From IMG/VR virus record IMGVR_UViG_3300032311_001250, positions 1 to 64,000 of that record: a stretch of DNA of 64,000 bases, one strand, 5' to 3'. The translations under genes were made by a program, and so were the position numbers. Below the pieces are notes generated by a model. The model did no database searches and was not told the DNA's origin. It saw only the letters and a list, made by a program, of their open reading frames with translations. Position 1 is the stretch's first letter. Each line of letters opens with the position of its first letter. This stretch comes from a virus. Shown in pieces: positions 10,956 to 61,591 of the stretch.

Positions 10956-13900
10956 GTGGCTGAGGGTCAGGGCGGGAATGTCGCAAGCGTAGGTCTATCT
11001 CTAGACTCGTCTGCGTTTAATTCTGGCGTAGCCCGCGCCCTTGCAGACATTTCCCGACTCCTCACCGGACTGCGCGAGCTTCAGGCTGCCAGCCAGAAAA
11101 CCAACCTCGGCCAACTCGGCGCTACTGGACGATCCGGAGCGGCTTCTGGCGCTTTTACCCCCGCAACATTTGCACGCGATATTCGTCGCCTTGCTATTCC
11201 GGCAATCCGTCAGCTTGATCGCGCCGCCTCCACGTCTCCGCTACTTACCGGAAGAATGGCTCGCGGTGCCGGGTTTGACCCTGCTGCCATGGCAGCGGCA
11301 ATCAATCGCCAGACAATTCCCGCAATCCAACGCCTCAACCGAACTATGGGGAGCTTCCGCGACTCCGACTTCATGAAGGAGTTTGAGGCTGGTCGAGCCG
11401 CCAGGGAGCGCGCTCACCGAGCAATGCTGGAGCGTGAGTCCAGGATTACGCAGGAAATTGCCAAGGGAACCACTAAGCGATTGGAGCGCGAGCAGGCGCG
11501 CATGATCCAGGCGCAGCAGGCTGAAAACCGCCGAGCGGCAGATCCAAACACCCAAGGCTCTCGACAGCTTCGTGCCGCAATTGAAATGCGCCGTCAACTT
11601 GCGGAGCAAAAGCGTTACGTTGAGGCGCACCCAACCCCAACGCAGACCCGCTATGCCGGAGGCGGAAGGGGCGGTGGCAGCCGTGAGGGTCGATGGGGTG
11701 ACGTTGCCGACCTGAAAGGCATTCCAAAGGACTGGCGCAAAGTCCTTATGCAGCTTGAGCAGCAGGGGTGGAGGATTGAGCCACGAAGTGGGGGCCATCC
11801 AGTTGCATACCCGACAAGCAAGCAATATAAGCCCATTACGTTCCCGAGCACGCCATCAGACCATCGTGACCTTCTAAACTTTATCTCGAAGGCACGACGA
11901 TCTGGCGGGGTTATCAATGGTCGTGGGTACCGAGATGAGGCCGGTCCATTTGTTGAGCGACAGCGTGGATTCTATGAAGACCCGTCAACCAAGAAACCGA
12001 CGCTTCGCGCCAACTATCGAATGGCTGCCCTTGAGGAACTTGTAACCTCTAACCTACCGAGCTATCCGCCGGTCATGCAACCGCGCCCTCGCGGCGTGTC
12101 TGGTGTCTCTGCGGCCGATCCTAACTCCCGGCAGCAAATTGAAAGAATGATCAAGGGCTTTGAGCGCGGCAAAGTGTTTGCCCCAAGCGCTAACCTTGAG
12201 GAAGGCCTCATTGCCACCGTGGCAAATGCTGCTGGACAGCAGTTCGTCGCATCCGGTAATGCCCGAACCATGGCGCTTCAAGCCATTGCAAAGCAAGGAA
12301 CTCCGCTTCGCAACGCCATTAGCGGCTTTAGCATGGAGTACCTAAAATCAAATCCAACAGAGTTTGGCCAGGGCGAGGTTGCCGCACTTAAAAAGGCTGG
12401 AGCATCTATTGCAAGGTCCGGCAAAACGCCAGTGCTCATCCGCGAGATTGCCGGTGGCGTAGAAGGCCTTGCTCCGCAGCGCCTTGGCCAGCTCGGTCTG
12501 CAACTCAATGCTCGAACCGGTCTTTCTGAGAGCGAGATCGCCATTGCTGCGTCGCGCATGCTTTCTAAGGTCCCGGCAGAGGTGCTTGCCGGAGATCCTC
12601 GTAAGATTGTCGCCGCAGGAAAGGGGCCAGCATATGAGGCCCTAAAGAGCGCCCTTTCTTCGGAAGTGCTCGGTGAGCATGTTATGGGGACAAGGTACAA
12701 GGGTGCCAGCGGTGGTGTTGCATTTAAGGGCATGATGGAGCAGATGCTGTATGCACGCGCGTACGGCAATAACCCGGCAACCGCCCAAATGCTCACCGCA
12801 GCGTTCTCCGGAGAGCCCTCAGAGATGAGTTCCTCTGTCAGGGCTGCACTTGGTCGTAGCCTTGGACCACAACTACGTCTCCGCGAACGAATCAATGCTG
12901 GAGAAGTTCCGGCAGGCATGGATCCAATCTTCAACTCGCTTCCTGGAGCATTGCAACTTATGCAAAGGGCACTCGGGACCGGCGGGCAGGGGCCAGGGTG
13001 GATTACCAACCCAGAAACACTTCGTGGAAACCCTGCCGGAGCGTTGCGTGCATTGCTTTCGCAGAAAACTATGTTTGGAGATCCGACTACAGCAATTGAG
13101 CGTCGTCTTGCCGCAAACATGCTTGCTGTCGGGCCTCAGGGTTTGTCTCCGTTCCTTTCCTCACTCGGCATGTACGGCTCCCGGGCAGAAGGTGCCCAGA
13201 TGGGCATGTTCGGCGCGTCTGAGGGTGGCCTGCTGCAAGCAACTAGCAACCCACGTCAGGCTATTGCACTGGCCCAGAAGGCAGCCGCACAATACCAAGA
13301 AGCACTAAAGACCGATCCGGCCCTGAAGGGCACCGGAAAGGCGGCCGTTACCGCCAGAGAGGCAGTGCTAACCTCCATTGTTGAGGGCGTCTATTCTGGC
13401 ATGCCTGCTCAAGCTGCGGCTGTGGCGCAGAAGGTGGCAACAAGCAGCCCACAGGCTGCTGCTGTCGGCCAAGAAATTGTGCAGGGGACCGCTGCGGCTG
13501 TCACTCAGGCTGCGGTAAATCCAAAGAGGAAGAAATTCACGTTTAAGCTTTCCGAGGAGGAGCAGGCTGCGTTCCTCAGTAAGCTTCGTGGACCAGTGGT
13601 TGCCCCCGCCTCACAGGGCGGCGGATATCAAATGTTCCCACCAGAAGAGCCAAGAACTGGGCTGCGCAGGCCAAATGCCCAGCGCATGACAGAGCTTGGT
13701 GGATACGGTATTTCTCCACGGGAAATCGGTGTTGCTGAGGGCAGCGTAAAGGCCCGTGCTGGTGGGTATCTGCCGTATAGCGAGTCTAGCCCACAGCGGC
13801 AAATGCAATACAACAATCGGCTTACACGCGGCTATGCAACGTTGATGGGTGAAATCGAGGGTCACCTCGCTCAACCAGGACCAAAGTCTACCGCCGCGCT

Positions 13901-16900
13901 TGCAGCAAAAATTCCAGAGGTTGAACGTCTATACAAGGTTGCTATGGAGCGTGGCGGCCTTGGCATGGACCCAATGAACGCCCATGCAGAAGTGGTTGCC
14001 AAGGCTCGAGCAATCCTTGGACCCGTAGCCATCCCGCAGTCAGAGCCCCAGCGGCCACCAATTGTTACCGCAACGCCGGTACCGACGACACCCGAAGGAA
14101 TTCCTTACATCAAGGTTCCAACTAGCGGAGAGTTGACTGAGGCCCAGATAAAAGCTGTCCAGGAGGGCCGAGCAAAGCTCTTAATGCCGCCTCCTCCACC
14201 TCGGCAAAAGACCGGAAGGAGCATTGGCGGTCCTATCCCGCCAACCAATGAGGGTTTGGCATCGCTCCTTGGCATTGGTCCGGCGCTGCAACTTGGTGCC
14301 GGATATCGTCCGTATCCTGGCGATCCAATGCTTGCCGCCCTTACGCGCGCTCAAGTAGAGCGACGCGCCCTCGCTCTGTCTCGTGGGCAGGTTGAGGGTC
14401 CCCTTATCGGGGCAAATCGTGGCGGCCTTGATCCGGTAACCGGTGCGTTTACTGTCAATCCGAAGATTCCAGAAGTCACCAGGATGCAAGGCGGAATGCT
14501 TCGTGCGCTTCTTACTAGCGAATCGCTGAGCGCAGCTGAAAAGGCACGACAGATCTCCCTTCTCAGCGGAAGCATTCCCGGCATGCGAGGGGTTCCAACG
14601 AGTATCCCAGAGGGCCAGTGGCAGAAGCTTGGGAGCGGGTCATATCGCGGACCAAAAGACCTCAAGCCAGTGTACGAGTCGCTCAAGCCGCTTATTGAGC
14701 AGTATGGTGCCGCTCGAACTATGGGCTACGTTGAACTTGCCAGGGGCTCTTCGCAAGGTTACGGGTATTGGGATCCAAAGAATAAAGGCCTGAATCTTTC
14801 TGGGCTTGAGGGACGAAGCTCTGGTGCAATCATGCGAACGTTGGTGCACGAGCTTGCGCATGGATCATTTGGCGAGGCAATGAGGACCGGCTACAAGCAG
14901 CCTGGTCAGGTTCAGATTTATGGCCCCAAGGGTGAAAGCATGGGCATGGCGCCGCATGGCGCTGCCTCTGCGCTTCTTGCCGGAGAGCCAACGAGAGTCG
15001 GCCACCTTGATCCAAAGTTCTACGAGATGCAGGCAAGGATTCTTAAGTCCGAGGGCGGGCTTTTCTCATCGTTGCTGTTCCATAACTTTGCGCAGGGTGG
15101 GTCGCTCCCAGGTGGGCTTGGGTTGCAGGGCACAGGCCCAGAATATGGTATTGGAAAGCTCGCCGCTCAACTGACTCCACAGCTAGAAAAACTTGCCTCG
15201 CCTCAGCAGCTTCTAGCCGCTCAGGCATTTACAAAGACTATGAACACCTTGGTAGGTGGTATTGAAGGATTTGCTAAGGGCAGGGGCAACCTCGAGCAGA
15301 CCAGCAACGGCATCGCAAAGGCGTTCAGAACGCTTGGAGAATCGTCCTCTGAATTCAAGCCAGAGTTTTTGCTCGGCGGTGCCGCCCGGCTATCCAACTT
15401 CATCCGGCAAAATGGCCAAGAAGGCCTGGCAAAGATGGCCCCAGAGCAGTTGCGTGCAGGAATCGTCAACTCCATCCTGTCTACCACGACCGGCGCACTC
15501 GGTCCGGGTCGGTTGCTGGGGCCAATGTCGCAGGTCAGTGGTGTTCATGGGCAGATCTCAGAGTTCCTCAAAAATGCCAGCGAAATGGAGAAGGGCTACC
15601 TGGCCATGGCGATCAACCCGCAGGCCTTTGTTAAGGAGCCCGGGGCAAAGCCATTCTACCAGCGTGGAGATGTAGATCATCTACAGAAGGCTCAGGAAAT
15701 CCTCTCAAACGTTGCGCAGGAGGCAGAACGCGCTGCAAGCGTCATCCCAGCAGCAACAAATGTTGCCGTTACGCGACGTGCCGGAATGCAGCTTCCTGTT
15801 ATCAATCGAGGACGCATGCTTCCGGCAGAACACTCGGTTGTTGTTTCCGGGCAGCGCTATGGGGCCGGTGGTGGTCAGTTTGTAGAAACAACTAATAGCG
15901 CCGGAGAGACTGTTCGGCAATTTGTTCCTGCTCAGCGCCTCCCAGAGGTAACCCCTGTACAGGGACCTATGTCTGGCTCCGGAGCCCTTGTCGTCTACGA
16001 CCCCCGCGTTGCTGCTCAATACGAGCAGAATAATCCACGCTTTGCCGGAAGGCCATATGGCGGTCGAGCAGAGACTCAACGCTTTACTCCGAATGCTGCT
16101 CTTCTCAACGAGGCATACATGCGCACGCTCAGCTACGGAGGACAGGGCTTCTTCGGTCGTGTAGGGTACGAGCGCCTGACAATGCCGGCACAAGAAATTG
16201 CAAGCCGGTACGCCGGATTCCGTGGCGCTGTTGGTCAGGCCGCATACAACAGCCCCCTCAGCCCAATTGGCGGCATGATGAGCCAGTTCCGACAGGCAAC
16301 AGGAACATATGCCGAGGCCGAAATGGGAAAGCAGCAGCTTCGCGCGGCGGCCCGCCAGCAATATCAAGGTCAAGTTGCCCAGGCTGATGCATTTGCCAAT
16401 GCCCAGACTCGATTGAATCGTGTTCTCGGTACTGGCACCGTAAACTTCCGAGAGCTTGGCAAGGTAATGAGCGAGGTCGGAAACGGCTTTACTTCTGGAG
16501 CTCTTTCTTCGCTGAGGTTCGCTGCAAACCTTGCCATTGGACAGCAGGCAGTGTTTGCGTTCGTCGGAATGATCAACCACCTCCGTGGCGGTATTATCGA
16601 GTTCAACGCAAAACTTGAGGCCGCTGCCGTAGGGTTTAACACACTCTTCCGAAACGCTGGATATACCGTCGAAGATGCGAGCGAGAAGACCAAGGCATTC
16701 ATTGGCGTTCTTCGTGACTTTGCCAACGTAACAAACTTCCGATTCGGCGACCTTGAGACCGCAGCCCTCCGCATGAAGGCATTCGGTTTCGAGGTGGATA
16801 ACGTTACCGCTGCCGCAAAGAACCAGATGCCAATCCTTGAGGAAATTCCTAATCCGTGGGCAAAACTGACCGGAGAGGCTAAGAGCTTCCGTGGCGCCCT

Positions 16901-19900
16901 CGTCAACATCGGCGATGCAGTTGCGGCACTCGGCGCAGAAGACGATAAACTCCGCCGTGTCACGTACGCCCTTGGCCAGATGAACTCAGCTGGTCGTGTC
17001 TATCAAAACGACATGATGCAGCTGGCAAACGCTGGTATTGCCGGATATGACATTCTTGCTAAGGCAGTTAAGAAGCAACTCGAGAATGACCCAGAGCTCA
17101 TGCGCGCAAATAAGGCCATCTATAACAAGTTGCTAAACCCAAGAACTGCCGTAGAGGAGATCCGCAAACTTGCCCGCGTTGGACGACTCGTTGGACCAGA
17201 GGCCGTGCAGGCCATTCTCCAGGGCCTTGGGCAGCAGTACGGCGGCGGCATGAAGGCGTTCTCCCGTACCTTCCAAGGAGCCATGACAACTCTTGCGGAT
17301 ACGTCGCAATCCCTTATTGCTACCGCGTTCAAGCCACTCTTCGATGTCACCCGAGATCTTGTCGTTCAGCTTGCCGACGCCTTCCAAACATCTGAGTGGA
17401 CGGGCAAGGCGGATAATGCCGCCAAGGTCATTCAGAAGGTTGCGGAAGCGCTCAGGTCAATGATCCCTGGAACGGCAGACACGATTATGAAGGTCCTTGG
17501 TAGCTTCTTTGAAACCTTTGCAAAACTTGGAAGCTCCCTTGGCAGTACCACAAATGGCTTGGGTAGCTTTGTTAATAACTTTGCTGCAGGAGTAAAGACC
17601 ATTGGAGATCTTCTTCAAAACAGCGTGATCCGCAACCTTTTGGTGGCCGGCGTTACCGCAAAACTCGTTATGGGAACAATTGCTTCCAACCCTCTCCTGG
17701 CAACCATTGGACTCATTGTGTCTTCCATTGGGGCAATCAGTAAGGCTATTGAGACAAACGCCTTTGGCTTTGGCGACCTTGCGGCAAAGGTGCAACCTGA
17801 ATTTGACAAGATCCTTGCAAATATCAGCGGAAACTTCATCCCGGGAGTAACGAGCGGCCTCTCCGACGGCCTGGGCGCGTTCTTTGCCATCATGGGGGCC
17901 TTCATCCGCGCAGTCACTCCGCTATTGGTCGCAATCCTGGACATCATTAGTAACGTTGGGTCTGCTATCAAGCCATTTGCCAGCGTTCTTGGCGTTGCGC
18001 TTGCGGCATTTGTTGGCAAGAAAGTCCTGATCGACGGCATGGCTGCCGCCATGGGTAAGTTTGCCGCCGCAACTGGCGCTGCCGTCGGCAGGGTCACATC
18101 GCTTAAGGAAAAGATGGCGCTGTATCAGGCGTTTGGAACCACCGGAAGGTACTACGGTGGCGACAAGCTAATGGCGATGCAAACTATGCAGCTGGCCAAT
18201 GGTCAAAGTCGAGCAGTTCTTGCCCCTGCCGAGCAGGGTGGAATTGGTATCGGCGGACCGACTGCCGTTCGCGCAGCCCTTGCCCTGGCGAATCAATTTG
18301 CCCTCCTGCAGACCGGAGCCCCACTCCAGACTGCCGGAGTCGTTCCGCCGCAAACGGTCCTTGACAAAAAGACCGGCCGCCAGGTCGCCAACCCAATGTA
18401 TCAACAGTTCCTTAATACCGCCGCATTTAATCCGCAGACAACTCTGGCCCAGTATCAAGCAATTCGCGGCGCACGAAAAGAAGAAATTATGCAGGAGTTG
18501 GCAATTCGAAGGAACAAGTCGCTGACCCCAGAACAGCGCCAGGCTGCTCTAGCAAATGTGTCAACTGCCGGACGCCAGGCATATCGACAATTCCGTGCAG
18601 ATACCGGAGGAGCTGGTTCTTCAAGCATGAAGGCCCTTGAGGCGTCATTTGCCTCAATGAGCCAGGGGATGATTGCCCAGCTCGGTCAGTTTATGGCCAA
18701 GATTCGATCCACTGGCCTCAGCTTGGAAACACTAAAGACTATTGCCAAGGCGGTTGGATCCCGACTTGCTGGCATGGCAACTGCTGCCATGGGCATGGGC
18801 ATGCTCTTTAGCGCTATCGGCGGAGCTTTGAATGTTAAGGAGCTTCAAGCAGTTGGAGATACGCTCACAACGATTGGGTTTGCAACAACAGGTTTGACCA
18901 TGATGTTTAACGCCTTGACTGTAGCTGTTGGCGCTGCCGCGCTGCCGCTTATGGCGCTTATGCTTGCAATTGGCGGCCTTATCGCGTTCATCAGTGCCAG
19001 CACAACTACCGAGCAGGATAAGAAAGGCGCAAAGCAAGTAAGCGAGATTATGGATCTCCGTGATCAGATGGTTGCAATGTACGGAGAGGAAGAGGCAAAG
19101 CGCAGGTTCCCGGACTACTTCCCAGAAAATCTTACGTTGCCGGAGAAAAAGTTGCGCATGGCCCTTCCCGGTGAAACCCCAGACTCTTATGATTGGATTA
19201 ACAATATCGCATTGAAACTTGATTATGACCCAAAGGATCTTGCCGCTGTCCGAAGTCAGTTCGGATTTACCGATGAGGATTTTGCAAAGACAAAAGCCTA
19301 TTTTGAGATGATGAATACCGATACCGGTCGAATTCTCTCCTTGTTCCAGGAAGGAAAAACGGCCGAGCAGATTGCTGAGATTACCGGTCTACCAATTGAT
19401 CGAATCAAGTTGCAGCTAAAGGAATTCTACGAGACAACTGGTTCTGACAATAAGGACTTTATTGCCAAGGTGCTTAGCGATAGCCTTGATGCAACCGGCG
19501 CTGCCCTGAAAGAAGCGCAGGAGGCTTACGAAAAGGCAATGGAGCCGTTCCAGAAGAACCTTAGCCGCCTGACTTCTCGAACCCAGGAAGTCATGCAGGC
19601 GCTCTTTGAGAGCGAGAAGAAGGCCCTGGAAGATGAGAAGAAGGCTGCGCTAGAAAATACGTTGGTAATGTACAACGGCGAGCAGGTCCGACTTGGCGTG
19701 CTGCAGCAGCAATATGATGCCATGAAGCTTCAGCGCGAAGAAATGGACCGCATGGCCGAACTTGAGAAACAGCGCACAGCTGCCGCAGAGGCCGCGCTCA
19801 ATATCTTTGACGCCAGTGTTGATCCGCTTGAGCGAGCTCGAGCGGCTCGAGAGTCCGCTCGAGATCTTTTCAATCAAGTTGGAACGTCAAGGCTTGACGA

Positions 19901-21560
19901 GATGCAGCGGGCGATTACCGCCGGCCAGGGGAATGTCGCCTATACAGAAACCGAGGCATTCTACAACGAGAAGATGGATGCCCTACAAAAGGATCAGGCC
20001 GAGCGAATGCGCACGGTCCAGGAGCAAATCGACGACTTGATGCAGAAGATCAAGGAAGGCAAGATTGGGACCGCCGCCGCACAGCAGCAGTTCAAGGATA
20101 TCTTTGCGCAAGCCGGTCTTGACCTCGACGTTGCCCAGACACAAGGGTACTCGTTTATGTCAGCCTTTGGCGATGGCTTCATGGATGCGATGAACACAAA
20201 TATTAAGGGCGTATTCTCCAAGCTGCCTGGACTTATCATGAAGGCGTTGGAAATGGTCAAGCAGGACAAGCTGTATCAGCAGGCCCTTGACGCCTATAAC
20301 GCCATCGTCACGATGGGTGACAAGATTACTGGCAAGGAATACAAGTCTAAGTATCTGCAGCCGCGCCTTGCTGGTTTGAACACTCTCTACAAAGATGCCG
20401 TTAAGTACCTTACCAGTGGCGAGGGCGTAAAGGCTGCCGGTGGCCTTGATAAGGCGCAAGCCATGATGGCCACACTGCTCAAGAAGAAGATCGAACTGGA
20501 AAACATGATCTCGGCAACTAGCGATACGGCTGTTATTGACAAGTCACTTGCATTGGCTGGAGACTCCTCATATCGCAGTGACATTATGGGTATCCAGTTG
20601 CCCGGCATGGGAAATCGCTCGCTTGTCGACTACCTCAGGCTTTACATGGGCTACGCTTCTCGTGACCGCGATAATTACATGAACAATCCGTATCTTGCCG
20701 GTGGCGCGGCTGGCGGTACAATCACGACTGCCGGTCAGTTCATGGTGGGCGAGCGCGGGCCGGAGATGATTGAAGTTGGGCCAAACGGCATTCGCGTCGT
20801 CCCAAACCACAAGCTTCCGTCCTGGCTGCGCTCGTCTGCCGGGGCTCTTGGCGCTGTCAATATGGGTCTGGGTGGCTATGCCTTTGGCACTGGTTCGGGC
20901 GACTCCGGAATGCGTGGACTGAAGTTTGACCCTAAACACATTAACCCGGAACACATTAGAAAATATGGCAACGTGTCAATGGCCGGAACCTGGCAGTCTG
21001 CCCTTGGCATGCTATTGATGCGTGCCGGGGCACCTATTGCCGCCCTTGCGTCAAGGGCCGGTAACGGACTTACTCGTGGAATGGAGTGGATGATTGGACC
21101 AGGACCACTTGGCAAGATGGCCGATAAGATTGTATCACTTGGCAGTAGCATCAATAATATTGATCCAGAAAATCTTGGACCAAAAATGAAGTTAATTAGC
21201 ACGCTCATGAAACCGCAAATGGACATGATGGCATTTGCGCAAGACGTTGGGTATACCAAGTATATGTCTACTGATTTCTTGAAAACTATGGCAGCTGCTG
21301 GTGGCACAATCGGCCTCACCGGGTTAGAAGCACAAGGCTTGATGGGTGCCCCTGGGTTCCTCATGAATCTTCTCAATGGTGGCCCACGATCAGTAACGCC
21401 ACCAAACGTGCATGCACACCCATCTCGATCACCAATTAGTGGTACAGTGAACATTCACAACCCGCAACTCAACTCTGCGGCCGACATTGACCGACTCGCC
21501 GAGCGCGTTGCGGAGGCTCAAGTGCGAGCACTTCGAAACTCCGGCTATGTAAAGAGGTAA
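10956..21560 (+). CDS. Tape measure protein, 3,534 aa, with HicA-like and HELAH zincin-like domains
   Basis: The protein sets tail length. At about 1.5 angstrom per residue it predicts a tail near 0.5 micrometre, less if globular inserts are excluded. Parts in order: helical N-terminus with many QxR-rich segments (1-230); a HicA-like dsRBD-fold domain (about 250-317: QQGWRIEPRSGGHP, then TFPSTPSDHRDLL); Pro/Ala-rich regions; a domain with the zinc-protease motif H1298-E-L-A-H1302; the conserved tape-measure domain (about 1,830-2,095, including LAIGQQAVFAFVGMI and RMKAFGF); hydrophobic segments (about 2,230-2,350 and 2,600-2,690); coiled coil (about 2,850-3,030); and a GERGPEMIEVGPNG motif near 3,264, typical of tape-measure C-termini. 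Start is GTG with a GGGGG RBS. Confidence 0.92.
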   Translation: MAEGQGGNVASVGLSLDSSAFNSGVARALADISRLLTGLRELQAASQKTNLGQLGATGRSGAASGAFTPATFARDIRRLAIPAIRQLDRAASTSPLLTGRMARGAGFDPAAMAAAINRQTIPAIQRLNRTMGSFRDSDFMKEFEAGRAARERAHRAMLERESRITQEIAKGTTKRLEREQARMIQAQQAENRRAADPNTQGSRQLRAAIEMRRQLAEQKRYVEAHPTPTQTRYAGGGRGGGSREGRWGDVADLKGIPKDWRKVLMQLEQQGWRIEPRSGGHPVAYPTSKQYKPITFPSTPSDHRDLLNFISKARRSGGVINGRGYRDEAGPFVERQRGFYEDPSTKKPTLRANYRMAALEELVTSNLPSYPPVMQPRPRGVSGVSAADPNSRQQIERMIKGFERGKVFAPSANLEEGLIATVANAAGQQFVASGNARTMALQAIAKQGTPLRNAISGFSMEYLKSNPTEFGQGEVAALKKAGASIARSGKTPVLIREIAGGVEGLAPQRLGQLGLQLNARTGLSESEIAIAASRMLSKVPAEVLAGDPRKIVAAGKGPAYEALKSALSSEVLGEHVMGTRYKGASGGVAFKGMMEQMLYARAYGNNPATAQMLTAAFSGEPSEMSSSVRAALGRSLGPQLRLRERINAGEVPAGMDPIFNSLPGALQLMQRALGTGGQGPGWITNPETLRGNPAGALRALLSQKTMFGDPTTAIERRLAANMLAVGPQGLSPFLSSLGMYGSRAEGAQMGMFGASEGGLLQATSNPRQAIALAQKAAAQYQEALKTDPALKGTGKAAVTAREAVLTSIVEGVYSGMPAQAAAVAQKVATSSPQAAAVGQEIVQGTAAAVTQAAVNPKRKKFTFKLSEEEQAAFLSKLRGPVVAPASQGGGYQMFPPEEPRTGLRRPNAQRMTELGGYGISPREIGVAEGSVKARAGGYLPYSESSPQRQMQYNNRLTRGYATLMGEIEGHLAQPGPKSTAALAAKIPEVERLYKVAMERGGLGMDPMNAHAEVVAKARAILGPVAIPQSEPQRPPIVTATPVPTTPEGIPYIKVPTSGELTEAQIKAVQEGRAKLLMPPPPPRQKTGRSIGGPIPPTNEGLASLLGIGPALQLGAGYRPYPGDPMLAALTRAQVERRALALSRGQVEGPLIGANRGGLDPVTGAFTVNPKIPEVTRMQGGMLRALLTSESLSAAEKARQISLLSGSIPGMRGVPTSIPEGQWQKLGSGSYRGPKDLKPVYESLKPLIEQYGAARTMGYVELARGSSQGYGYWDPKNKGLNLSGLEGRSSGAIMRTLVHELAHGSFGEAMRTGYKQPGQVQIYGPKGESMGMAPHGAASALLAGEPTRVGHLDPKFYEMQARILKSEGGLFSSLLFHNFAQGGSLPGGLGLQGTGPEYGIGKLAAQLTPQLEKLASPQQLLAAQAFTKTMNTLVGGIEGFAKGRGNLEQTSNGIAKAFRTLGESSSEFKPEFLLGGAARLSNFIRQNGQEGLAKMAPEQLRAGIVNSILSTTTGALGPGRLLGPMSQVSGVHGQISEFLKNASEMEKGYLAMAINPQAFVKEPGAKPFYQRGDVDHLQKAQEILSNVAQEAERAASVIPAATNVAVTRRAGMQLPVINRGRMLPAEHSVVVSGQRYGAGGGQFVETTNSAGETVRQFVPAQRLPEVTPVQGPMSGSGALVVYDPRVAAQYEQNNPRFAGRPYGGRAETQRFTPNAALLNEAYMRTLSYGGQGFFGRVGYERLTMPAQEIASRYAGFRGAVGQAAYNSPLSPIGGMMSQFRQATGTYAEAEMGKQQLRAAARQQYQGQVAQADAFANAQTRLNRVLGTGTVNFRELGKVMSEVGNGFTSGALSSLRFAANLAIGQQAVFAFVGMINHLRGGIIEFNAKLEAAAVGFNTLFRNAGYTVEDASEKTKAFIGVLRDFANVTNFRFGDLETAALRMKAFGFEVDNVTAAAKNQMPILEEIPNPWAKLTGEAKSFRGALVNIGDAVAALGAEDDKLRRVTYALGQMNSAGRVYQNDMMQLANAGIAGYDILAKAVKKQLENDPELMRANKAIYNKLLNPRTAVEEIRKLARVGRLVGPEAVQAILQGLGQQYGGGMKAFSRTFQGAMTTLADTSQSLIATAFKPLFDVTRDLVVQLADAFQTSEWTGKADNAAKVIQKVAEALRSMIPGTADTIMKVLGSFFETFAKLGSSLGSTTNGLGSFVNNFAAGVKTIGDLLQNSVIRNLLVAGVTAKLVMGTIASNPLLATIGLIVSSIGAISKAIETNAFGFGDLAAKVQPEFDKILANISGNFIPGVTSGLSDGLGAFFAIMGAFIRAVTPLLVAILDIISNVGSAIKPFASVLGVALAAFVGKKVLIDGMAAAMGKFAAATGAAVGRVTSLKEKMALYQAFGTTGRYYGGDKLMAMQTMQLANGQSRAVLAPAEQGGIGIGGPTAVRAALALANQFALLQTGAPLQTAGVVPPQTVLDKKTGRQVANPMYQQFLNTAAFNPQTTLAQYQAIRGARKEEIMQELAIRRNKSLTPEQRQAALANVSTAGRQAYRQFRADTGGAGSSSMKALEASFASMSQGMIAQLGQFMAKIRSTGLSLETLKTIAKAVGSRLAGMATAAMGMGMLFSAIGGALNVKELQAVGDTLTTIGFATTGLTMMFNALTVAVGAAALPLMALMLAIGGLIAFISASTTTEQDKKGAKQVSEIMDLRDQMVAMYGEEEAKRRFPDYFPENLTLPEKKLRMALPGETPDSYDWINNIALKLDYDPKDLAAVRSQFGFTDEDFAKTKAYFEMMNTDTGRILSLFQEGKTAEQIAEITGLPIDRIKLQLKEFYETTGSDNKDFIAKVLSDSLDATGAALKEAQEAYEKAMEPFQKNLSRLTSRTQEVMQALFESEKKALEDEKKAALENTLVMYNGEQVRLGVLQQQYDAMKLQREEMDRMAELEKQRTAAAEAALNIFDASVDPLERARAARESARDLFNQVGTSRLDEMQRAITAGQGNVAYTETEAFYNEKMDALQKDQAERMRTVQEQIDDLMQKIKEGKIGTAAAQQQFKDIFAQAGLDLDVAQTQGYSFMSAFGDGFMDAMNTNIKGVFSKLPGLIMKALEMVKQDKLYQQALDAYNAIVTMGDKITGKEYKSKYLQPRLAGLNTLYKDAVKYLTSGEGVKAAGGLDKAQAMMATLLKKKIELENMISATSDTAVIDKSLALAGDSSYRSDIMGIQLPGMGNRSLVDYLRLYMGYASRDRDNYMNNPYLAGGAAGGTITTAGQFMVGERGPEMIEVGPNGIRVVPNHKLPSWLRSSAGALGAVNMGLGGYAFGTGSGDSGMRGLKFDPKHINPEHIRKYGNVSMAGTWQSALGMLLMRAGAPIAALASRAGNGLTRGMEWMIGPGPLGKMADKIVSLGSSINNIDPENLGPKMKLISTLMKPQMDMMAFAQDVGYTKYMSTDFLKTMAAAGGTIGLTGLEAQGLMGAPGFLMNLLNGGPRSVTPPNVHAHPSRSPISGTVNIHNPQLNSAADIDRLAERVAEAQVRALRNSGYVKR

Positions 21561-41514: not shown

Positions 41515-42033
41515 ATGGCAAAGCGTGGGCGCGTAGGCGCCGAGCAGCTTACTGCTCTACGGGAAAAGATCAAGGGACTGCACCTTCAGGGCGTCCCTTT
41601 GCCGGAAATCGCCACGGCATTGCAGCTATCGCCGGAAACTGTCCGCAAGCATATTTACGTCATCCGTAAGCAGTGGTCGGAAGAAGGCCCTGACGCCGCC
41701 CAGTCCAGGATGGAGCTTCTTCAGCGTGTCAACCTAATTGGGAAGATGGCAGCTGCTGGCGCTGCACGAGCTCGTGGATCAAAAGAAGAGGCGACGTTTC
41801 TAAAACTCCAGCTTGAGGTGGTTGATCGCCTTGCCAAGTTAACCGGCGCGTACATGGGCGAAGGAATCCAGAGCATTAAAAACACCACAAATATGGCCAT
41901 TCAGATCAACCAGGCCACGCATGAAATTGATAATCTGCCTCCGGAAGAGCTGGCCAAGAGGTTGCAGATGTGGGCGGATGAGGTTACGGAGAATCTACGG
42001 GTGATTGATGGAACAGCAGAAGAGCGTAAATAG
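41515..42033 (+). CDS. terS: Terminase small subunit
   Basis: 172 residues directly before the large subunit. An N-terminal HTH (LHLQGVPLPEIATALQLSPE then TVRKHIYVIRKQW) would bind packaging-site DNA. A helical oligomerisation segment follows (RVNLIGKMAAAGAARARGSKEEATFLKLQ) and an acidic C-terminus (DNLPPEELAKRLQMWADEV) probably contacts the large subunit. Start at 41,515 follows the -10 box. Upstream in-frame ATG at 41,458 is not supported. Confidence 0.75.
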   Translation: MAKRGRVGAEQLTALREKIKGLHLQGVPLPEIATALQLSPETVRKHIYVIRKQWSEEGPDAAQSRMELLQRVNLIGKMAAAGAARARGSKEEATFLKLQLEVVDRLAKLTGAYMGEGIQSIKNTTNMAIQINQATHEIDNLPPEELAKRLQMWADEVTENLRVIDGTAEERK

Positions 42034-43435
42034 CAGCTACCGGGATTGGCTTCGGGTCAAGGCCCAGACATCCGATGCGGCATTTGCCGAATACGTTAGC
42101 GGCTTGGTGTTTCCGCGACATCTTCGTGAGATGGAGCAATTCTTGGACAAAAACGACCGTGGGCTTGTGCTCATGCCCCGTGGACACGCCAAGACAACGC
42201 AGTTGATCCATCGGGCCGCCCGAATGATTGGCCTGACCAAAGGGAAAGTAAGGATTGGCGTGCTAACTGCCGTTATGTCTGATGCCCTTGCGCGTTCTCG
42301 AGCCATCAAGGCCCTCATTGAGTCGCCCTTCTTTGCCGAGGTATTTCCCTGGGCACAAGATGGCGTCATTGGCTCAAAGTGGACCGATGAGGTCTGGACG
42401 GTGAAGGGGGCCAACCTTGGAAAGGACTCCACTTGCTTTGCCGATGGTCTTGGTTCGATCAAACCTGGTGCCCGTCTTGACATTCTTTTTGCGGACGACA
42501 TGGTTGGACTGAAGGAAAATGCCACGTCCGGGCAAAGGCAAAAGGCAAGCGAGACTTATTGGCAGGTTGTTGACCCAATGCTTGTCCCCAAGGCAAAACG
42601 CTGGTACATCGGCACGCGATGGCACGAGGATGACTTTTACGCAGAGCTGATTAATAAAGGTGTCCAACACTATCAGCGACGGGCCCTAGAAGATGACAAG
42701 GTGCTTTGGCCAGAAATGTATACGGTTGCCGATATGGAGCAGAAGAAACAGGAGCTCGGCACGCCGATCTTCATGCTGCAGTTTCAAAACGATGTGACCT
42801 CCATGGGCGGCAATATCTTCCGGTACGACTATTTCCAGCGTGTTGATCGTGTGCCGGAAGGCGCTCGTAGGATTGGCGTCGACCTTGCTTCTTCCTCGAG
42901 CGAAAGAAGCGACTACACCGCTGCCGTAGAGATTCTGGAAGACTCTGAGCACAACCTATACATTGTGGGTGCTTGGAGGGCTCGACTCCAAGAGGGACAC
43001 CGGGCCTGGCTTACCGGAATTAACAACGATGGCAGCATCAATGAGGAGCGCGGACCCCGGATGCTTTGGCCCCAGCGACTCGTCGGCCTCAAGGGGCTAG
43101 ACCCAGAGCTCGATGACGTGCGATTCTTCGAGTCTATGAACATCGAGGCCGTTCAGCACCAAAGTACGTTTGTGCGAGAAATCCTGTCGACAACAAGCTT
43201 GCCTGCTCGCGCCGTTCGACCGGACAAAGACAAGGTGTCAAGAAGCCGGGCGCTGGCCGCCAGGTACGAGGCAGGAAAAGTGTTTCACGTGAATAATGCC
43301 CCAGGGATTTCCGACCTGGAGTCCGAGATGCTGGCATTTCCCAATGGTCAGCATGATGACATGGTAGATGCCTTGGTGTATGCCTCAGACCTTGGGGGAT
43401 CTGGTTTTTACTTTACCTCAGCCAAGAGGTATTAG
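42008..43435 (+). CDS. terL: Terminase large subunit
   Basis: 475 residues. Walker A PRGHAKTT (57-64), Walker B ending D163-D164 (LDILFADD), and the RNase H-like nuclease with D292 (GVDLAS), D302 and the C-terminal cluster HDDMVDA (449-455). ATP-driven packaging motor and genome cutter. Overlaps the small subunit by about 26 nt. Unusually, it is about 40 kb downstream of the capsid genes and no portal gene adjoins it. Confidence 0.93.
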   Translation: MEQQKSVNSSYRDWLRVKAQTSDAAFAEYVSGLVFPRHLREMEQFLDKNDRGLVLMPRGHAKTTQLIHRAARMIGLTKGKVRIGVLTAVMSDALARSRAIKALIESPFFAEVFPWAQDGVIGSKWTDEVWTVKGANLGKDSTCFADGLGSIKPGARLDILFADDMVGLKENATSGQRQKASETYWQVVDPMLVPKAKRWYIGTRWHEDDFYAELINKGVQHYQRRALEDDKVLWPEMYTVADMEQKKQELGTPIFMLQFQNDVTSMGGNIFRYDYFQRVDRVPEGARRIGVDLASSSSERSDYTAAVEILEDSEHNLYIVGAWRARLQEGHRAWLTGINNDGSINEERGPRMLWPQRLVGLKGLDPELDDVRFFESMNIEAVQHQSTFVREILSTTSLPARAVRPDKDKVSRSRALAARYEAGKVFHVNNAPGISDLESEMLAFPNGQHDDMVDALVYASDLGGSGFYFTSAKRY

Positions 43436-53819: not shown

Positions 53820-54278
53820 ATGCCAGAAATCAGCACAGAAAATATCGACGATCTGATCCTTCACCCGGATAATCCTCGTGAGGGGGATATTGGTGCGATT
53901 GTTACAAGCATCAAGAAGAACGGGTGGTTTGGCACGGTCGTAGCTCAGAAATCAACCGGCTATATTCTTGCAGGGAACCATCGCGTGCAGGCCGCTCGAA
54001 TCTGCGGCATCAAAGAGGTCCCGGTATTCTGGGTGGACTGCGACGATGAGCGTGCAAAGGCAATCCTTCTTGCGGATAACAAGACAGCGGAGCTGGCAAG
54101 CTGGAACGATGATACCTTGCTTGCGCTACTTCAGGAGGCAGATGCCGGGAACTACCTTCTCGACACAGCATTCGATCAGGACGATATTCAGAAGCTTCTA
54201 GCCAAGCTTAATAGCGCAGATGGCGACGACGGGGACGTGTGCCCAACATGCGGCTCGAAGCGAAAGAAGGGCCGATGA
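53820..54278 (+). CDS. ParB-like nuclease-domain protein, 152 aa
   Basis: Start set by RBS AGGGGG. ParB N-terminal fold: DLILHPDNPREGDIGAIVTS, GYILAGNHRVQAARICGIKE, VPVFWVDCDDERAKAILLAD, KTAELASWNDDTLLALL. C-terminus CPTCGSKRKKGR is a half zinc knuckle. Phage ParB-like proteins often pair with a DNA methylase; here the next gene is a metalloprotease-like protein instead. Confidence 0.82.
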   Translation: MPEISTENIDDLILHPDNPREGDIGAIVTSIKKNGWFGTVVAQKSTGYILAGNHRVQAARICGIKEVPVFWVDCDDERAKAILLADNKTAELASWNDDTLLALLQEADAGNYLLDTAFDQDDIQKLLAKLNSADGDDGDVCPTCGSKRKKGR

Positions 54279-58500: not shown

Positions 58501-58728
58501 CTATCGGATTCTCCTAATTTTCCAGCTGCGCGTGCCGTACGGACGGCGCATAATCCACCCATCATGCTCGAGCTTATTGACAGCACGCTGCACCGTACTC
58601 CGGCCGCAGTTCAGGATTTCGGTCATTTCCTGGAACGTCGGGGATCGATTCCAGGTATCCATGTATTCCCGCATGGCAATAAGCACCTCATCCGGGGTTG
58701 GGGCGCCCTCGGGTCGATTAGCCTTCAT
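58501..58728 (-). CDS. LexA-type winged-helix DNA-binding protein, 75 aa
   Basis: PTPDEVLIAMREYMDTWNRS, PTFQEMTEILNCGRSTVQRA, VNKLEHDGWIMRRPYGTRSW match the LexA N-terminal DNA-binding domain without the protease domain. A small repressor-like protein. Overlaps the sigma-like gene by ATGA. It could recognise operators in the control region nearby. Confidence 0.75.
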   Translation of the reverse strand: MKANRPEGAPTPDEVLIAMREYMDTWNRSPTFQEMTEILNCGRSTVQRAVNKLEHDGWIMRRPYGTRSWKIRRIR

Positions 58729-59126
58729 CCTGCCACCGAATACGCGCGCATCTTGCGCATCCTGCTTGGGTGCCGGAGTGTCGTCAGGGCGGCGTTTTCG
58801 ATCTGGCGCACACGCTCTCGGCTCAGGTTGTACTTTTGTCCAACCTCTTCCATCGTCATTGGGCGGTTCAGGCCAATCCCGTAGCGCATAGAGAGGATGT
58901 CCCGGTCGCGTTCAGGCAGACTTTCGAGCATTTCGTGGATTAACCTTACCATATCGGATGTCAAACTCAGCTCTTCCGGAGATGGCTCCGGTGACTCAAT
59001 GAGATCCCCCAAGGTTGCTTCGTTGTCTTCCCCATAGGTTTTATCCAAGGACGACAGCGTGACCATATCGAGCATCGCTCTCATTTCCCGCACATCGTCG
59101 GCGGTAATGACCTTCTTTTTTGTCAT
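58725..59126 (-). CDS. Sigma-70 region 4 protein lacking region 2, 133 aa
   Basis: Start 59,126 set by RBS AAAGGAG. Residues 58-126 are a clear sigma region 4 (HEMLESLPERDRDILSMRYG, TMEEVGQKYNLSRERVRQIE, LTTLRHPSRMRKM). Residues 35-55 resemble the end of region 3. Region 2, needed for -10 recognition and melting, is absent. Known relatives in function would be T4 gp33-like co-activators or appropriators; whether this one redirects RNA polymerase is inference. Confidence 0.78.
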   Translation of the reverse strand: MTKKKVITADDVREMRAMLDMVTLSSLDKTYGEDNEATLGDLIESPEPSPEELSLTSDMVRLIHEMLESLPERDRDILSMRYGIGLNRPMTMEEVGQKYNLSRERVRQIENAALTTLRHPSRMRKMRAYSVAG

Positions 59127-60545: not shown

Positions 60546-60665
60546 TCAACGCCGTTTATTCTTGCGGCTTTCCTTGATCTCATACCGTGCTTGTTCAATG
60601 ATGATGAGCACCCCAATAGCAATCGCCACCGCCCATGCCCAATCTCCATAGCTCATGTGATTCAT
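60546..60665 (-). CDS. Single-pass membrane peptide, 39 aa
   Basis: Sequence MNHMSYGDWAWAVAIAIGVL, then IIIEQARYEIKESRKNKRR: one membrane helix and a basic cytoplasmic tail. RBS GGAGGGAG 8 nt upstream. It lies between the non-coding control region and the operon promoter. Confidence 0.55.
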   Translation of the reverse strand: MNHMSYGDWAWAVAIAIGVLIIIEQARYEIKESRKNKRR

Positions 60666-60740
60666 TGTTCATCTCCCTCCGGTCGATTACTGTATCACGT
60701 GGTTATTACATTTTGGCACTAAGGACTTCTACGCCAGTGA

Positions 60741-60809
60741 GCCTCGGGCTCGGCCCGAAAACGCCGAAGGCGGTTGAGCCGTGAGGCGAGGGTCACGGTG
60801 CCGTGAGGC
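60741..60809. other. Structured GC-rich element in the control region
   Basis: GCCTC-g-GGCTC pairs with GAGCC-gt-GAGGC (60,741-60,787), with an inner hairpin CGCC-GAA-GGCG (60,762-60,772). Direct repeats GCCGTGAGGC stand at 60,778-60,787 and 60,800-60,809. Part of the 600-bp gap 60,666-61,270 that has no supportable gene. Confidence 0.5.
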
Positions 60810-60933
60810 AGGCGCCGTACAAGCTCCATAGGGATAGAGAACGACTAAGAGAACGTAGTAGGGAACAACGCCTTCATTCATGGCTAATTCTTCCTGTGCT
60901 GGGGACTACTTGCTCCTGCCTGTGCTATGACCA

Positions 60934-61197
60934 GTTATTCCCTGCGCTGGTACTTTGTTTGAGGTTGTGGCGTGTGGGTGGTGGTTTGGTGTCTGAAACG
61001 GGAAGATGATATTTGGCTGGTGGATTTGGGTGGTTGCCACGGCGGGGGGTTATTCCAGGCCGTTTATGCCCCTCTTCACAACCATCATATCTAAGGTTAT
61101 TCCAGCCCTTTTCCGCACGAGTTATTCCCCCAGCTCCAGTTATTCCGGGGTTATTCCAGGGTTATTCCGGAGTTATTACGGAGTTATTCAGGAATAA
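60934..61197 (+). repeat. GTTATTCC iteron array with 11-bp period (origin or control candidate)
   Basis: Seven exact GTTATTCC copies start at 60,934, 61,049, 61,096, 61,121, 61,139, 61,150 and 61,161. Variants follow at 61,172 (GTTATTAC) and 61,183 (GTTATTCA), and an inverted GGAATAA at 61,191. The last five direct copies are exactly 11 bp apart, one helical turn, so bound proteins would stack on one face. Such iterons are typical of replication initiator or master-regulator sites. Confidence 0.7.
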
Positions 61198-61201
61198 TTA
61201 C

Positions 61202-61260
61202 GGCTTCTTAACCAAATCGACCCACAGGCAACGCGCTGGGCAGATTAAGGCTTCTTAACC
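61202..61260 (+). repeat. 12-bp direct repeats GGCTTCTTAACC
   Basis: Exact copies at 61,202-61,213 and 61,249-61,260. The second ends 10 bp before the TTGACA of the next promoter, so it could be an operator. Confidence 0.55.
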
Positions 61261-61270
61261 TTCGCTGGGT

Positions 61271-61320
61271 TTGACAGCTGGCTCTCTATCCCCTATGGTG
61301 GTACTGCCCTCTTTGGGGTA
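61271..61320 (+). promoter_or_regulatory. Promoter plus leader hairpin for the + early genes
   Basis: TTGACA (61,271-61,276), 17 bp, TATGGT (61,294-61,299). The leader folds TGCCCT/GGGGTA (61,305-61,320, loop CTTT) before GTAGTAGGAGG. Good consensus and the first of four such cassettes. Confidence 0.65.
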
Positions 61321-61339
61321 TGTAGTAGGAGGTACCGGT

Positions 61340-61591
61340 ATGGCAACAGGCCAGAAGTACGAGAACGGAATGCTCGAGGGGTTCTTGGCCGCTCGGGGTG
61401 CCTATGCGTTTATGCAGGCACAGCAGACCCAGAATCCAGAGGCGATGCGGAGCTACCTTGATGCGTGCATTGCCTATGGGGATGCGCTCAGGATTTATCA
61501 GGCAGAAGGCGATGGCCCCGAGGTGCAGCGGCTTACCGGTGTCGGTATGGACGCGACCGACAAGGCGCACGAGCTTGAGAAGGCCTCATGA
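61340..61591 (+). CDS. Hypothetical helical protein, 83 aa
   Basis: Start at 61,340 (MATGQKYENGMLEGFLAARG) set by AGGAGG. All-alpha pattern (AYAFMQAQQTQNPEAMRSYL, LRIYQAEGDGPEVQRLTG). First gene right of the iteron array. No family recognised. Confidence 0.62.
   Translation: MATGQKYENGMLEGFLAARGAYAFMQAQQTQNPEAMRSYLDACIAYGDALRIYQAEGDGPEVQRLTGVGMDATDKAHELEKAS

What the first reader, a model, noticed from the sequence alone, without database searches (positions are those of the whole stretch)
60934..61197. GTTATTCC iterons with exact 11-bp period: candidate origin or master switch
Seven exact, two near and one inverted copy lie in the only large non-coding gap, exactly where transcription diverges. 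Five are phased at 11 bp. The motif is not a DnaA box (TTATNCACA), so a phage-encoded binder is expected.
Basis: partly seen in the sequence, partly recalled or inferred. Interest (0 to 1): 0.75.

Follow-up and report, generated by a model that had tools for sequence, protein, structure and literature searches.

The report
Repeat array upstream of phage promoter
An uncultured tailed phage and its relatives keep a one-directional cluster of short GTTATT repeats just upstream of their main early gene switch, next to a previously undescribed folded DNA or RNA element; the repeats are real and conserved, but whether they control early gene expression, start DNA replication, or both is not yet shown.

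Summary
In detail: seven exact GTTATTCC copies, two near copies and one inverted copy lie at 60934-61198, five of them at exactly 11 bp. Shuffles never reproduce the cluster. The array is old: GTTAT[T/G] clusters of 5-12 copies, almost always on the same strand, occupy the same place in nine genomes sampled from a family of uncultured siphophage contigs. The 11-bp phase is not conserved (spacings of 9, 13 and about 15 bp are common in relatives), so phasing is not the essential property.

The array belongs to a larger early control region. To its right are two GTTAAG-N4-CTTAAC palindromes, a conserved TTGACA-17-TATGGT promoter, and the first gene of the rightward early operon. The palindrome recurs 11-12 bp upstream of other rightward early promoters. 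To its left is an ~83-nt element that folds on the + strand, with 11 compensated base pairs and no Rfam match.

Best reading: an upstream regulatory array for the rightward early promoter, bound by a phage protein. A three-HTH protein from the same operon is the leading candidate. An origin of replication remains a serious rival. The GC-skew minimum is there, but skew follows gene strand. Excisionase-type (Cox/Apl) operators are unlikely, since no integrase was found.

The parts
60666..61339 (.). Non-coding region between the leftward and the rightward early genes
   Evidence: Sequence and ORFs; alignment with relatives
60732..60814 (+). Folded element on the + strand: three-way junction (helices P0, P1+P2, P5) with further hairpins inside P2; loops GAA and GTGA; one copy per genome
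   Evidence: 80-98% identical in divergent relatives; 11 base pairs with changes on both sides and 98.4% of cells paired; single hits with its covariance model; not in Rfam
60702..60709 (+). Outlying near copy GTTATTAC, kept in the closest relatives
60934..60941 (+). GTTATTCC copy 1 (outlying)
60946..61035 (+). G+T-rich tract (81% G+T on the + strand); a similar tract is the most G+T-rich 90 bp of relative G001
   Evidence: alignment
61049..61056 (+). GTTATTCC copy 2
61096..61103 (+). GTTATTCC copy 3
61121..61128 (+). GTTATTCC copy 4
61139..61190 (+). Five copies at exact 11-bp spacing: 61139, 61150, 61161 (GTTATTCC), 61172 (GTTATTAC), 61183 (GTTATTCA)
61191..61198 (-). Inverted near copy (ATTATTCC)
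61197..61212 (.). Palindrome-like site ATTACG-N4-CTTAAC (2 mismatches to GTTAAG-N4-CTTAAC)
   Evidence: perfect in G009 and G036
61244..61259 (.). Palindrome ATTAAG-N4-CTTAAC (1 mismatch), 11 bp upstream of the -35 hexamer and 47 bp from the first site
61271..61299 (+). Rightward early promoter TTGACA-17-TATGGT, conserved in all array-bearing relatives aligned
61327..61332 (+). Ribosome-binding site AGGAGG of the first rightward gene
   Evidence: Sequence; conserved
61340..61591 (+). First gene of the rightward early operon (83 aa, no known family)
58501..58728 (-). 75-aa winged-HTH protein; considered as binder, but no match in two array-bearing relatives (G009, G015)
58725..59126 (-). Sigma-70 region-4 protein; patchy in relatives

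Best explanation
The array is a conserved upstream regulatory block of the phage's main rightward early promoter. Several copies of an asymmetric GTTAT[T] site on one strand collect molecules of a phage-encoded DNA-binding protein near the promoter at 61271-61299 and so set early transcription. The two GTTAAG-N4-CTTAAC palindromes form a second class of site for a dimeric regulator. Because that palindrome sits 11-12 bp upstream of the -35 hexamer at several promoters and does not overlap the core promoter, I infer that it acts as an activator or modulator site. The leading candidate binder is a three-HTH protein made by the same operon (record 65465-65917, just outside the window). Shown: the array, its conservation, its position, the promoter, the recurrence of the palindrome, and the co-occurrence of the three-HTH gene. 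Inferred: who binds, and what binding does.
For: The array lies in the same place, with nearly all copies on one strand, in nine genomes sampled, down to relatives with no detectable homologue of the gene at 61340. The rightward promoter TTGAC[A/G]-17-TA[T/G]G[G/A]T or a close variant is conserved in all eleven aligned loci. The palindrome has expectation about 0.12 per genome at up to 1 mismatch. In nine of the ten cases with a TTGAC hexamer close downstream it ends exactly 11-12 bp before that hexamer, including a second promoter inside the early operon in G009, G033, G035 and G036. The three-HTH gene is found in every array genome whose record reaches that far. Its recognition-helix residues R28, Q29, R30, Q33, Q131 and N134 are invariant over nine homologues. 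Its model has nine helices in three HTH units (pLDDT 80.5), and it matches a D5-like transcriptional regulator family at 1.3e-7. No integrase or resolvase was found in seven records, so an early control region of a lytic phage fits better than an excision site.
Against: The GTTAT array is a single cluster per genome, unlike the palindrome, and a unique cluster is what an origin would show. The array ends about 80 bp upstream of the -35 in this genome. No binding or expression data exist. The three-HTH protein could instead bind the palindromes or something else. The folded element and the G+T-rich tract are not explained by promoter control alone.
Confidence: 0.45

Rival explanations
1. The array is the iteron set of the phage's theta replication origin. 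A phage initiator binds GTTATT iterons, and the DnaC-like loader brings in host helicase. The folded + strand element nearby could serve as a single-strand initiation or primase site. Early transcription from the adjacent promoter may activate the origin.
For: Same-strand repeats in a single unique cluster. It is the only such non-coding cluster, low-complexity runs aside, in the complete 85.6-kb relative, and no iteron-like family occurs in the DnaC/SSB region. The cumulative GC-skew minimum falls within about 2 kb of the array in most array-bearing records compared. A unique, strongly conserved element that folds on one strand lies 0.2-2 kb to the left. A DnaC-like loader and SSB are present in relatives.
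Against: Spacing is not constant even between close relatives, whereas that of origin iterons usually is. Replication genes are about 20 kb away in G001. Third-position skew follows gene strand. No DnaA box near the window array. No strong AT-rich unwinding region beyond the array itself.
Confidence: 0.35
2. Recombination-directionality-factor operators of the P2 Cox / 186 Apl type: direct repeats one helical turn apart between divergent early promoters.
For: Five copies one turn apart between divergent transcription units; 186 has seven Apl sites at 10-11 bp between pR and pL (PMC7498355). A 75-aa winged-HTH gene lies near.
Against: Relatives use spacings of 9, 13 and about 15 bp, which do not keep one face of the helix. 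No tyrosine integrase or serine recombinase in seven records including the complete G001. The winged-HTH gene has no match in array-bearing G009 and G015.
Confidence: 0.05
3. The array works as RNA: GUUAUU repeats in a rightward leader or non-coding transcript that starts left of the folded element, acting as a protein-binding leader or sponge.
For: Strict strand orientation, lack of phase constraint, and a covarying element on the same strand.
Against: No conserved rightward promoter left of the array was found. The conserved promoter is to the right of the array, so the array would not be in its transcript.
Confidence: 0.08
4. The repeats are a slippage-driven tandem expansion without a dedicated function.
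For: Unit length differs between lineages and copies are gained and lost.
Against: The same GTTAT core recurs in the same place and on the same strand in relatives whose surrounding sequence no longer aligns.
Confidence: 0.07

Closest known systems
Apl / Cox operators of P2-like phages (186 pR-pL)
   Same: Multiple same-direction repeats about one helical turn apart in the gap between early transcription units (PMC7498355)
   Different: Phasing not conserved in relatives; no integrase; the repeats lie upstream of the rightward promoter and not between face-to-face promoters
Iteron origins of plasmids and temperate phages (plasmid iterons, lambda O sites; from general knowledge)
   Same: Unique cluster of direct repeats on one strand, near an early promoter and the skew minimum
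   Different: Variable spacing, no initiator gene beside it, no DnaA boxes, no clear unwinding element; replication not tested
Mycobacteriophage stoperators
   Same: Asymmetric sites recognised by a phage regulator (PMC9283540, title and abstract)
   Different: Stoperators are scattered across the genome; here one cluster per genome
D5-like DNA-binding regulators (phrog_323) and Cbp1 (PDB 2lvs)
   Same: Multi-HTH architecture resembling the candidate binder
   Different: Weak similarity only (Foldseek E 0.02 to 2lvs); binding to this array not shown

Membership tests
Iteron-type replication origin | Several direct repeats in one orientation | tested here: met
Iteron-type replication origin | Constant repeat spacing within the family | tested here: not met
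   Spacing 9-28 bp among relatives
Iteron-type replication origin | Initiator gene next to the repeats | tested here: not met
   DnaC-like loader, SSB, RusA and exonuclease lie about 20 kb away in G001; no initiator identified
Iteron-type replication origin | AT-rich unwinding element | tested here: inconclusive
   Best 80-bp window 61% AT, 98-99th percentile, coinciding with the array itself
Iteron-type replication origin | Replication starts there | not testable with these tools
   GC skew is confounded by gene strand
DnaA-box cluster | TTATNCACA boxes with at most 1 mismatch in the array | tested here: not met
   None in the window array; 1-3 near matches in some relatives
RDF (Cox/Apl/Xis) operators | Direct repeats one helical turn apart, conserved | tested here: not met
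   Met in the window, not in relatives
RDF (Cox/Apl/Xis) operators | Integrase or att system in the phage | tested here: not met
   PF00589 and PF00239 absent from seven records; the 14-genome control rang in 14 and 10
Early-promoter regulatory region | Conserved promoter with recurring operator-like sites | tested here: met
Early-promoter regulatory region | Regulator binds the array and alters transcription | not testable with these tools
   Needs binding and reporter assays
Known Rfam RNA family (folded element) | Match above gathering score | tested here: not met

The most novel reading that the evidence does not exclude
The whole block at 60732-61340 is a composite phage origin-and-switch of a new type. 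An 83-nt element folds as single-stranded DNA on the + strand, with GNA/GNNA-type hairpin loops (GAA, GTGA) and Watson-Crick-only compensation, and serves as a strand-initiation or protein-docking site. A non-phased GTTAT array and the promoter complete it.
Probability: 0.15. Interest if true: 0.75.

Novelty: new variant of a known kind. Interest (0 to 1): 0.45.

Why it matters
It marks one compact region, conserved in a large uncultured siphophage family, as the likely control centre of infection, and gives testable sites (array, palindrome, promoter, folded element) and a testable protein. The folded element is strongly supported by compensated base changes, is absent from Rfam, and could be a new type of functional DNA or RNA structure in phages.

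Tried and rejected
Near-identity search of known phages: no match; sensitive DNA search gave one chance hit. A pattern scan with CTCCATAGGGATAGAGAA fetched four unrelated contigs (L018-L021) where it lies inside what reads as a coding sequence. L005 and L007 carry two chance copies of the 11-bp unit and are unrelated. The winged-HTH protein as obligate binder: rejected, no match in two array genomes. DnaA boxes: not found in the window array. Excisionase operators: no integrase and no phase conservation. GC skew as proof of an origin: rejected because third-position skew follows gene strand. Search of bacterial genomes for the folded element or a terminase relative: none, so host and lifestyle are not known from genomes. 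A leftward sigma-70 promoter inside the gap, conserved across relatives, was not found. Folding a longer stretch around the element as RNA was not exceptional; only the exact domain on the + strand is.

Full report
OBSERVATION. GTTATTCC occurs at 60934, 61049, 61096, 61121, 61139, 61150 and 61161 on the + strand, with one stray copy at 25683. The window expectation is 1.28 and no shuffle reached eight. GTTATTAC at 61172, GTTATTCA at 61183 and an inverted near copy at 61191-61198 complete the list. The copies from 61139 to 61183 are 11 bp apart. No shuffle of the whole record had more than three GTTATT in 200 bp, against eight here. The array lies between the leftward genes, the nearest of which starts at 60665, and the plus-strand gene at 61340.

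WHAT THE WINDOW IS. The window is the first 64 kb of a 78,442-bp virus record. It is a siphophage: a 3534-aa tape-measure protein at 10956-21560 and a terminase large subunit at 42005-43435. A relative (G001) carries a 123-bp direct repeat at its ends and so represents a complete circular assembly of 85,584 bp. Where they align, the two are about 72-94% identical. G001 shows what our record lacks: a leftward operon with an HTH protein, a PD-(D/E)XK exonuclease, a DnaC-like helicase loader, RusA and SSB. That operon is about 20 kb from the array. No integrase or serine recombinase was found in seven records of the family.

THE ARRAY IS CONSERVED, THE PHASE IS NOT. A terminase search found 153 related stretches, of which 80 were kept. 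In those that reach this region the array is present in the same place: G001, G002, G005, G006, G009, G010, G014, G015, G033-G036, and, more distantly, G023, G025, G044 and G046. Across nine sampled genomes the 69 sites share [A/G]GTTAT[T/g][C]. Between 5 and 12 copies occur per genome, almost always on the + strand (G023 and G044 also use GTTATG). Spacings of 9, 11, 13 and about 15 bp are common. G044 repeats about every 14.5 bp and G009 has 9-bp neighbours. The exact 11-bp phase is therefore a feature of this lineage, probably from recent tandem duplication, and not a requirement. In G025 some GTTATT words lie in signal-peptide-like codons downstream of the start and may be coding coincidences.

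NEIGHBOURING SITES. Alignment of eleven relatives shows a sigma-70-type rightward promoter, TTGACA-17-TATGGT, at 61271-61299 in the window. Upstream are two copies of a palindrome, GTTAAG-N4-CTTAAC, 47 bp apart (61197 and 61244; perfect in G036). This palindrome recurs at further promoters inside the rightward early operon. The distance from its end to TTGAC is 11 or 12 bp in nine of the ten cases that have such a hexamer close downstream. That fixed position, upstream of and not overlapping the core promoter, is what I would expect of an activator or modulator site. This is an inference.

WHO COULD BIND. Three regulators were considered. The 75-aa winged-HTH protein (58501-58728) has no match in array-bearing G009 and G015 and is present in other genomes. 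The sigma region-4 protein (58725-59126) is patchy. The three-HTH protein at record position 65465-65917 is found in every array genome whose record reaches that far. Its recognition-helix residues are invariant over nine homologues. The predicted structure has three three-helix units (pLDDT 80.5, pTM 0.38). It matches a D5-like transcriptional regulator family (1.3e-7). Its best solved-structure match is the CRISPR-repeat-binding protein 2lvs, at a weak E of 0.02. It is the best candidate, but co-occurrence is not binding.

THE FOLDED ELEMENT. The most conserved part of the gap is not the array but 60732-60814. It is 80-98% identical in relatives whose flanks no longer align, occurs once per genome, and is absent from Rfam and, as its core pattern, from a held set of bacterial genomes. 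On 18 distinct sequences, 25 proposed pairs are kept in 98.4% of cells. Eleven pairs have changes on both sides; sliding the partner by 1-3 columns leaves 0-2 such pairs. On the 22 pairs with firm alignment, 394 of 396 cells are Watson-Crick and none is a G-T/G-U wobble in either reading direction. With DNA parameters the predicted fold of the + strand agrees closely with the covarying structure and beats shuffles (z -2.1, -4.0, -2.8 for three members). The minus strand does so less (z -0.7, -1.7, -0.7). RNA parameters also favour the + strand. Its loops, GAA and GTGA, are GNA/GNNA-type, a class known from general knowledge to stabilise DNA hairpins, while GTGA is also a GNRA RNA loop. In several relatives the element sits between leftward genes, just before the next gene's ribosome-binding site (read by eye), so the folded + strand would be antisense to that mRNA. 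I therefore leave open whether it works as single-stranded DNA or as RNA. The structure was derived from these same sequences, so the slid controls lean in its favour.

ORIGIN OR SWITCH. For an origin: a unique one-strand array, the only comparable non-coding cluster in G001 apart from low-complexity runs; the skew minimum nearby; and the folded element. Against: inconstant spacing, distant replication genes, no DnaA boxes, and third-codon-position skew that tracks gene strand. For a switch: the conserved promoter, the operator-like palindromes and a co-occurring multi-HTH protein. I put the regulatory reading at 0.45 and the origin at 0.35; they are not exclusive, since phage origins often overlap early promoters (general knowledge).

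COMPARISON. The window array resembles the 186 Apl operators, seven direct repeats at 10-11 bp between pR and pL (PMC7498355). Membership fails on phase conservation and on the missing integrase. Stoperators are asymmetric sites too, but they are dispersed across the genome (PMC9283540).

LIMITS. All relatives are metagenome contigs. Host, lifestyle, transcription and replication are unknown. Gene calls for short ORFs are approximate, which also limits the skew test. The closest relatives share long identical tracts, so independent evidence of conservation comes mainly from G015, G023, G025 and G044.

Noticed in passing
60732-60814 (+): Strongly covarying folded element, one per genome, not in Rfam; Watson-Crick-only compensation and GAA/GTGA loops; DNA or RNA role unknown.
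   Followed up: yes
L002:8870-9130 (record 68870-69130): A second early promoter with a degenerate palindrome (GTTAAGATACCTTACA) and CTTAY words about 11 bp apart is followed by at least 200 bp of conserved, apparently non-coding leader in seven relatives; candidate non-coding RNA.
   Followed up: partly
60946-61035: G+T-rich + strand tract (81% G+T), present in array-bearing relatives with a similar tract in more distant ones; could be strand-asymmetric or rut-like on the minus strand.
   Followed up: partly
60829-60841 and 61283-61298: The sequence CTCTATCCC(C)TATGG appears on the minus strand left of the array and on the plus strand inside the rightward promoter, as mirrored copies.
   Followed up: no
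60880-60930 (+): Possible 16-codon ORF (MANSSCAGDYLLLPVL) with a leader resembling that of the 61340 gene; reading frame not kept in all relatives.
   Followed up: no
10956-21560: Very large (3534-aa) tape-measure-like protein, implying a very long tail if this reading is right.
   Followed up: no
L002:14400-17710 (record 74.4-77.7 kb): Short intergenic repeats (TTCATCATTCATTC-type) scattered between small genes in the right arm.
   Followed up: no
58725-59126 (-): Phage-encoded sigma-70 region-4 protein adjacent to a winged-HTH gene; patchy in relatives.
   Followed up: partly
53820-54278 (+): ParB N-terminal-domain protein, found in most of the relatives checked.
   Followed up: no
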